Both the position numbers and the translations under genes were made by a program. A DNA stretch of 64,000 nucleotides, from NCBI RefSeq assembly GCF_001625445.1, contig NZ_LWHG01000031.1, positions 1 to 64,000 on the forward strand, in the 5' to 3' direction. Shown piece after piece: positions 28,234 to 52,831 of this stretch (position 1 is its first letter; the number at the start of each line of letters is the position of its first letter). A model generated the notes under the pieces. It was not told the origin of the DNA, made no database searches, and saw only the letters and a program-made list of their open reading frames with translations. This DNA comes from Haladaptatus sp. R4. GTDB taxonomy: Archaea > Halobacteriota > Halobacteria > Halobacteriales > Haladaptataceae.

Positions 28234-28332
28234 TCCCCCGAAATCGCCCGATAGGAGCGTGTGCGCCACCGTAGCACCCCGTCATGGATTTGAAAGCGTT
28301 TTTATGGGGGCATACTCTACTGGAGGGTACAA

Positions 28333-28404
28333 CCTACGCGGGGTTGATGATGCTCCTAGCCGCACAGGACTCATCCGGCAGGGGAGCCTGAGCCAGCGCG
28401 TAGG
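28333..28404 (+). promoter_or_regulatory. C/D-type kink-turn in rpl7ae leader (candidate L7Ae autoregulation)
   Basis: The leader between the TATA-like TTTTTATG (about 28299) and rpl7ae folds into one long hairpin. The outer stem is CCTACGCG (28333-28340) with CGCGTAGG (28397-28404), followed by GGT/GCC. Then come a C box TGATGA (28345-28350) and a D box CTGA (28388-28391) facing each other, and an inner stem GCTCC/GGAGC (28352-28356, 28383-28387). This is the layout of an L7Ae-binding kink-turn. The ribosome-binding site GAGGTG (28406-28411) abuts the outer stem, so L7Ae binding could repress its own translation. Confidence 0.7.
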
Positions 28405-28419
28405 AGAGGTGAACAACCT

Positions 28420-28782
28420 ATGCCAGTATACGTCAATTACGACGTCCCAGCTGACTTGCAGGACCGAGCGCTCGACGCGCTCGAAGTCGCACGGGACACA
28501 GGAAGTGTAAAGAAAGGAACGAACGAGACGACCAAGGCAGTCGAGCGCGGCAACGCCGACCTTATCTACGTCGCGGAAGACGTGACGCCGGAAGAAATCG
28601 TCATGCACCTGCCCGAACTCGCCGACGAGAAGGGAATCTCCTTCATCTTCGTCGAGACGCAGGACGATGTCGGTCACGCGGCCGGACTCGAAGTCGGCAG
28701 CGCTGCCGCCGCCATCGTTGACGCTGGCGAAGCCAGCGACGACGTGGACGACATCGCCTCGAAGGTCGAGGAACTTCGGTGA
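28420..28782 (+). CDS. rpl7ae: Ribosomal protein L7Ae
   Basis: 120 residues. [20 protein letters not shown] and the RNA-binding core [20 protein letters not shown] are diagnostic of archaeal L7Ae. It binds kink-turns in 23S rRNA, box C/D and H/ACA guide RNPs and RNase P. The ATG at 28420 has a strong GAGGTG site 8 nt upstream. It heads an operon with rps28e, rpl24e and ndk, a conserved archaeal order. A C/D-like kink-turn in its own leader suggests feedback control. Confidence 0.97.
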
Positions 28783-28793
28783 GGTGGTAGACG

Positions 28794-29020
28794 ATGAGTG
28801 CTGAAGAGACCGGACAGGAGGATTCCACCTCCGCCGAGGTCATCGAAATCGTCGGTAAGACGGGGATGCACGGCGAGGCCATGCAGGTCAAGTGCCGCAT
28901 CCGTGAAGGTAGCAACCAAGGGCGAATCATCACTCGCAACTGTCTCGACCGGTCCGAGAGGGCGACGTGCTCCAGTTGCGAGAGACCGCACGTGAGGCAG
29001 ACTCCATCGGAGGACAATAA
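28794..29020 (+). pseudogene. rps28e: Ribosomal protein S28e, frameshifted (almost certainly sequencing error)
   Basis: Starts [20 protein letters not shown], then [19 protein letters not shown] and GRIITRNCL are standard S28e. At about 28947 the frame slips after NCL and would continue as [10 protein letters not shown]. Restoring one G (CTCGGACCG) gives [20 protein letters not shown] followed by ADSIGGQ and TAA at 29018-29020. The repaired length is about 75 residues, as expected. S28e is a universal archaeal 30S subunit protein, so a real frameshift is very unlikely. The stop overlaps the rpl24e start (TAATG). Confidence 0.93.
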
Positions 29021-52475: not shown

Positions 52476-52550
52476 AGCGGGATGGGATAGCCAGGAGATT
52501 CCGGCGGGCTCATAACCCGCAGATCGGTAGTTCAAATCTACCTCCCGCTA
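52476..52550 (+). tRNA. Initiator tRNA-Met(CAT), copy 1
   Basis: 75 nt. Acceptor AGCGGGA pairs with TCCCGCT, discriminator A. The anticodon arm GGCGGGCTCATAACCCGC has anticodon CAT with three G-C pairs next to the loop, the initiator hallmark. T-arm GGTAGTTCAAATCTACC. No intron and no encoded CCA. An identical gene follows 281 bp downstream. Confidence 0.96.
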
Positions 52551-52756: not shown

Positions 52757-52831
52757 AGCGGGATGGGATAGCCAGGAGATTCCGGCGGGCTCATAACCCG
52801 CAGATCGGTAGTTCAAATCTACCTCCCGCTA
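52757..52831 (+). tRNA. Initiator tRNA-Met(CAT), copy 2
   Basis: Identical in all 75 bases to the copy at 52476-52550 and in the same orientation. The upstream flanks are also nearly identical, so both copies are probably expressed from equivalent promoters. Confidence 0.96.

What the first reader, a model, noticed from the sequence alone, without database searches (positions are those of the whole stretch)
28299..28419. C/D-type kink-turn in the L7Ae leader: candidate autoregulation
C box TGATGA (28345) and D box CTGA (28388) face each other between an 8-bp outer stem plus GGT/GCC and a 5-bp inner stem. This is the binding site type of L7Ae. The ribosome-binding site abuts the outer stem. 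Archaeal L7Ae autoregulation through a leader kink-turn is reported for Sulfolobus, and this would be a haloarchaeal case. The base before the C box is U rather than the consensus purine.
Basis: partly seen in the sequence, partly recalled or inferred. Interest (0 to 1): 0.72.

Follow-up and report, generated by a model that had tools for sequence, protein, structure and literature searches.

The report
Kinked RNA leader of ribosomal L7Ae
The messenger RNA for ribosomal protein L7Ae in this salt-loving archaeon begins with a folded RNA element carrying a kink-turn, the shape that L7Ae itself binds; almost all haloarchaea sampled have it, so the protein very probably shuts off its own synthesis, by a known archaeal principle in an enlarged form not yet tested intact.

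Summary
A structured 5' leader of about 90 nt lies directly upstream of rpl7ae (eL8) in a Haladaptatus-type genome. Comparison shows 387 of 391 sampled haloarchaeal genomes carry it (376 by covariance model, 11 more by closer search or reading), with strong covariation. The sheared G.A pairs use GA 28349-28350 (not 28346-28347) with GA 28390-28391; the bulge is UGAU 28345-28348. Relatives with a one-base-shorter bulge and compensating changes in the C-helix fix this. The 'D box' CUGA is not conserved (13 of 100); only its GA is. So it is a generic L7Ae-type kink-turn, not a C/D guide RNA. The leader spans the whole 5' UTR: promoter spacing is constant, and the Shine-Dalgarno overlaps or abuts the 3' strand of a fixed-length outer stem. 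Most likely L7Ae binds the kink-turn, locks the stem and represses its own translation. That principle is known (Daume 2017; Huang 2019), and Daume reported a Haloferax leader, but tested a ~50-bp fragment that by our mapping lacks the true bulged strand. The elaborated architecture is a new variant of a known kind. A conserved apical RGGA remains unexplained.

The parts
28289..28306 (+). promoter: BRE-like TTTGAAAGCG and TATA-like TTTTTATG
   Evidence: conserved; in all 100 leaders a TATA-like box starts 27-30 nt upstream of the T of TACA
28328..28331 (+). conserved UACA just 5' of the outer stem, probable transcription start region (inferred from promoter spacing)
   Evidence: T 97, A 98, C 97, A 92 of 100
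28333..28340 (+). outer stem P1, 5' strand
   Evidence: covariation
28342..28344 (+). kink-turn C-helix, 5' (bulged) strand GGU; -1b = U28344
   Evidence: -3 pair G-C 92 / A-U 6 / G-U 2; -1 pair U-G 91 / C-G 5 / U-A 3
28345..28348 (+). kink-turn bulge UGAU (4 nt; or GAU plus one extra U); 3 nt in 21 of 100 relatives
28349..28350 (+). Kt-b GA, sheared pairs with GA 28390-28391
   Evidence: GA 100/100
28352..28356 (+). NC-helix (inner stem), 5' strand
   Evidence: covariation in all five pairs
28359..28362 (+). apical stem P3, 5' strand
28366..28369 (+). conserved apical RGGA (AGGA here), role unknown
   Evidence: R 96, G 98, G 95, A 95 of 100
28376..28379 (+). apical stem P3, 3' strand
28383..28387 (+). 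NC-helix, 3' strand
28390..28391 (+).
   Evidence: A1n 100/100, G2n 95/100 (A in 5)
28392..28394 (+). kink-turn C-helix, 3' strand GCC
28397..28404 (+). outer stem P1, 3' strand; 13 nt from -1n to the P1 end in 95/100, 12 in 5
28406..28412 (+). Shine-Dalgarno GAGGUGA, complementary to the 16S 3' end, 1 nt after P1, 7 nt before AUG
28420..28782 (+). rpl7ae (eL8/L7Ae), 120 aa, the presumed ligand and the regulated gene
   Evidence: TIGR03677 E 2.7e-52; same family as PDB L7Ae chains such as 1s72_F, 1rlg and 4bw0

Best explanation
The whole 5' UTR of rpl7ae is a cis-regulatory RNA. It folds as an about 12-pair outer helix (P1 plus the C-helix of a kink-turn), a kink-turn, an inner NC-helix and a variable apical domain. 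When L7Ae exceeds what ribosomes, C/D and H/ACA RNPs and RNase P use up, free L7Ae binds the kink-turn, bends and locks the stem whose 3' strand abuts or overlaps the Shine-Dalgarno, and blocks 30S binding, lowering translation of its own mRNA and possibly of the downstream cistrons. Shown here: the conserved structure, the kink-turn core and its register, the position against promoter and Shine-Dalgarno, and the restriction to the rpl7ae leader in this genome. Inferred: L7Ae binding, repression, the occlusion mechanism and the effect on downstream genes.
For: Near-universal conservation (all loci inspected end at the rpl7ae start codon) and strong covariation. Kink-turn core: UGA 100/100 and A1n 100/100, G2n 95/100. 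Bulge 3 or 4 nt with a standard pair at -1 in 99 of 100. By the published rules (PMC6298567: 3b = C or 3n = G favours ion-driven folding), 3n is never G and 3b is C in only 15 of 100, so kinking is predicted to need L7Ae in most. A TATA-like box lies a constant 27-30 nt upstream; -1n to P1 end is 12-13 nt and A1n to AUG 22-30 nt although the apical part varies from 33 to 141 nt. The Shine-Dalgarno begins inside P1 in 58 of 100. Outgroups and deep-branching haloarchaea carry a minimal kink-turn hairpin at the same place. Only one model hit in the own genome. The principle was shown in vivo in S. acidocaldarius and structurally for A. fulgidus.
Against: No binding or expression data for the intact haloarchaeal leader. 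P1 is predicted to form without protein (0.96 in the window; above 0.9 in 70 of 100), unlike the A. fulgidus leader, and in the window the Shine-Dalgarno lies just outside P1, so protein-free occlusion would be partial and the gain from L7Ae may be steric. The majority 4-nt bulge is not the textbook 3 nt. The conserved apical RGGA is not explained by this model.
Confidence: 0.83

Rival explanations
1. The leader is a box C/D guide sRNA (or its precursor) processed from the 5' UTR.
For: UGAUGA and CUGA in the window; weak sub-threshold Rfam matches to C/D families sR21 (14.8 bits, gathering 45) and sR7.
Against: D box CUGA kept in only 13 of 100 relatives; the 5' part of the 'C box' is changed or shortened in 21 of 100 while the generic kink-turn stays. 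The interior is a structured helix, not two antisense guides.
Confidence: 0.03
2. The structure acts mainly without L7Ae, for example as a leader that sets translation efficiency, mRNA stability or ribosome standby, and the kink-turn is incidental.
For: P1 is predicted stable without protein; the apical RGGA is conserved and can pair with the 16S 3'-terminal UCCU (inference).
Against: The G.A core, bulge and C-helix are the most constrained part, the gene encodes the kink-turn binder, and lineages without the elaborated form keep a kink-turn.
Confidence: 0.08
3. A kinetic switch: the 5' end (UACARCC) pairs with the bulged strand (GGUUG), keeping the kink-turn and P1 open until L7Ae binds.
For: Five-pair complementarity in the window; unusual conservation of UACA; compensated pairs in a few rows.
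Against: No covariation beyond shuffles (36/500 and 73/500); broken in the clade with UACACCC (C in 16 of 100 at that position); much weaker than P1.
Confidence: 0.05
4. One reading: C box 28345-28350 with GA 28346-28347 forming the sheared pairs.
For: Literal match to the C-box string.
Against: Variants CUGUGA, UCAUGA, UUGUGA, UCGUGA, CCGUGA and CGGUGA lack a GA there but keep the second GA, and form a standard -1 pair with a 3-nt bulge.
Confidence: 0.03

Closest known systems
Archaeal l7ae 5'-leader kink-turns (S. acidocaldarius, Daume et al. 2017 PMC5539422; A. fulgidus, Huang et al. 2019 PMC6298567)
   Same: Same gene, same place, tandem G.A kink-turn next to the Shine-Dalgarno, and a GAU-type bulge strand
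   Different: Here the C-helix is lengthened into a fixed about 12-pair stem predicted stable without protein, the Shine-Dalgarno is at the far end of that stem, the bulge is mostly 4 nt, and a variable apical domain with a conserved RGGA is added. Daume et al. saw high leader conservation only in Sulfolobales, and their ~50-bp Haloferax fragment cannot hold the bulged strand, which lies about 100 nt before the start codon in Haloferax relatives
Minimal kink-turn hairpins in l7ae leaders of deep-branching haloarchaea and other classes of the phylum (L132, L134-L136; most of L175-L192)
   Same: GA/GA kink-turn just before the Shine-Dalgarno
   Different: C-helix of about 2-3 pairs; no P1, no apical domain
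Box C/D terminal kink-turn
   Same: A-UGAUG and, in the window, CUGA with 3b:3n = U:U
   Different: D box not conserved; no guide regions
Yeast L30e pre-mRNA kink-turn autoregulation (as cited in PMC6298567)
   Same: An L7Ae-family protein binds a kink-turn in its own message
   Different: Eukaryotic, also acts on splicing

Membership tests
Kink-turn (L7Ae-binding) | tandem sheared G.A and A.G pairs | tested here: met
   G1b, A2b and A1n 100/100; G2n 95/100, A in 5; sheared geometry itself not testable
Kink-turn (L7Ae-binding) | 3-nt bulge between C-helix and G.A pairs | tested here: inconclusive
   4 nt in the window and 79 of 100, 3 nt in 21; the extra U may lie in the helix
Kink-turn (L7Ae-binding) | canonical C-helix and NC-helix on either side | tested here: met
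   covariation in both helices
Archaeal L7Ae autoregulatory leader | kink-turn in the 5' UTR of l7ae, close to the Shine-Dalgarno | tested here: met
Archaeal L7Ae autoregulatory leader | kink-turn not expected to fold in metal ions alone (3b not C, 3n not G; -1b:-1n not C:G) | tested here: met
   window 3b:3n U:U, -1 U:G; 85 of 100 pass the 3b:3n rule, 95 of 100 lack C:G at -1
Archaeal L7Ae autoregulatory leader | stem-loop unstructured without protein (shown for A. fulgidus; not strictly defining) | tested here: inconclusive
   P1 predicted at 0.96 in the window and above 0.9 in 70 of 100, so the stem is probably preformed; prediction only, and the kink itself is not modelled
Archaeal L7Ae autoregulatory leader | L7Ae binds and represses translation | not testable with these tools
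   needs EMSA and a reporter
Box C/D guide sRNA | conserved C (RUGAUGA) and D (CUGA) boxes | tested here: not met
   CUGA in 13 of 100; UGAUGA in 72 of 100; Rfam far below gathering

The most novel reading that the evidence does not exclude
The crown-haloarchaeal rpl7ae leader is a two-input element: the kink-turn senses free L7Ae, while the conserved apical RGGA recruits a second partner (the 16S 3' end as a standby site, or another ribosomal protein), so that L7Ae supply is matched to ribosome assembly.
Probability: 0.12. Interest if true: 0.65.

Novelty: new variant of a known kind. Interest (0 to 1): 0.47.

Why it matters
It turns a scattered claim into a precise, testable RNA family: one structured leader in essentially all crown haloarchaea, in a group where leaderless mRNAs are common, with exact bases to mutate. 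It indicates that the published Haloferax test used a fragment lacking half of the kink-turn, and it shows a minimal ancestral regulator elaborated into a larger one, most simply on one branch. It gives a candidate Rfam family (no Rfam match at present).

Tried and rejected
Box C/D guide RNA (D box not conserved, Rfam below threshold). Alternative 5'-end pairing with the bulged strand (no covariation). Pairing of the apical AGGA with UCCU of the inner strand or with the 5' CCUG of P1 (partners change in L018/L025 and L047/L077 while RGGA stays). Other copies in the genome (single hit). Element outside the class: only weak hits (best E 6e-4); most l7ae leaders read there carry minimal kink-turns instead.

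Full report
Observation. The window holds rpl7ae at 28420-28782, followed by rps28e, rpl24e and ndk. Its single-strand fold is the expected hairpin, -38.1 kcal/mol, z -2.49, which alone would be only suggestive. Rfam has no match above threshold; two C/D families appear far below their gathering scores.

Comparative evidence. Eighty relatives from genome contigs all carry a clearly homologous leader. Thirty, aligned by MAFFT without structure, support the structure: 90.5% of cells paired, 13 of 21 pairs with changes on both sides, 0 of 500 shuffles as high, and slid versions at 37-51%. A covariance model finds one copy in the own genome and a copy in 376 of 391 haloarchaeal genomes, 82 of 86 genera. 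Of the 15 misses, 11 do carry the element, mostly with longer apical inserts; four genomes of two families (G021, G218, G286, G383) have a minimal kink-turn hairpin instead. In a set of 100 leaders 94.4% of cells pair and 17 of 21 pairs change on both sides (this alignment is fitted to the model, so the MAFFT result is the cleaner test).

Register of the kink-turn. Across 100 leaders UGA (28348-28350) is invariant, A28391 is invariant, and G28390 is G in 95 and A in 5. So the sheared pairs are G28349.A28391 and A28350.G28390, and the window's bulge is UGAU (or GAU with one extra U, as in the GAU bulges listed by Huang et al.). The D box is not conserved: CUGA in 13 of 100.

Placement. In all 100 leaders a TATA-like box starts 27-30 nt upstream of the conserved UACA, so transcription probably starts there and the element is the entire 5' UTR (inference from promoter spacing). 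The 3' strand of the outer helix is constant (13 nt from -1n to the end of P1 in 95, 12 in 5), and A1n lies 22-30 nt from AUG where measured, while the apical part varies from 33 to 141 nt. The Shine-Dalgarno, complementary to the 16S 3' end present in this genome, begins inside P1 in 58 of 100 and otherwise within a few bases of it; in five no match was found by the simple rule used.

Mechanism. L7Ae binding and repression are inferred. They rest on the established behaviour of the protein family and on in vivo autoregulation in S. acidocaldarius (PMC5539422) and the A. fulgidus structure and probing (PMC6298567). By the published folding rules the haloarchaeal kink-turn mostly should need L7Ae to kink: 3n is never G, 3b is C in 15 of 100, and -1 is rarely C-G. 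Yet P1 is predicted to form alone, which differs from the A. fulgidus leader. My reading is that the stem forms first and L7Ae then locks and bends it next to the Shine-Dalgarno.

Evolution. On an L7Ae tree (few columns, quick method) the 100 crown sequences form a group with SH-aLRT 99 that excludes the four minimal-leader haloarchaea; bulge length needs about six changes on that poorly resolved tree. Other classes of the phylum also carry minimal kink-turn hairpins at l7ae. The elaborated leader is therefore best seen as one later enlargement of an ancestral regulator.

What is known. Daume et al. proposed feedback in most archaea and included H. volcanii, noting a Kt-b strand further upstream in their alignment, but tested about 50 bp with S. 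acidocaldarius L7Ae in E. coli. In Haloferax relatives the true bulged strand ends about 100 nt before the start codon, so that fragment lacks it (inference; H. volcanii itself was not read here). They report high leader conservation only for Sulfolobales. Huang et al. do not mention Haloferax. I found no description of the haloarchaeal element in the papers searched, a limited library.

Open point. An apical RGGA is nearly invariant although its surroundings range from a simple hairpin loop to a multi-hairpin junction. I found no partner in the leader; pairing with the 16S 3'-terminal UCCU is possible but speculative.

Noticed in passing
window 28794-29018: rps28e (S28e) is frameshifted by one missing base after about codon 50 compared with Haladaptatus sp. 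DYF46 (L002); the S28e model matches only residues 6-51. In an essential gene this is probably a sequence or assembly error.
   Followed up: partly
window 28366-28369 and relatives: Near-invariant apical RGGA in the rpl7ae leader with no intramolecular partner found; it could pair with the 16S 3' end.
   Followed up: partly
L114, L150, L156, L157, L165, upstream of rpl7ae: A few leaders have A instead of G at position 2n of the kink-turn (A.A instead of A.G).
   Followed up: no
L117 and L118, upstream of rpl7ae: Two closely related genomes carry the element with an apical insertion of more than 100 nt, missed by the genome-wide model search.
   Followed up: partly
window 52476-52550 and 52757-52831: Two tRNA genes with the same Rfam score about 280 nt apart, possibly a tandem duplication.
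   Followed up: no
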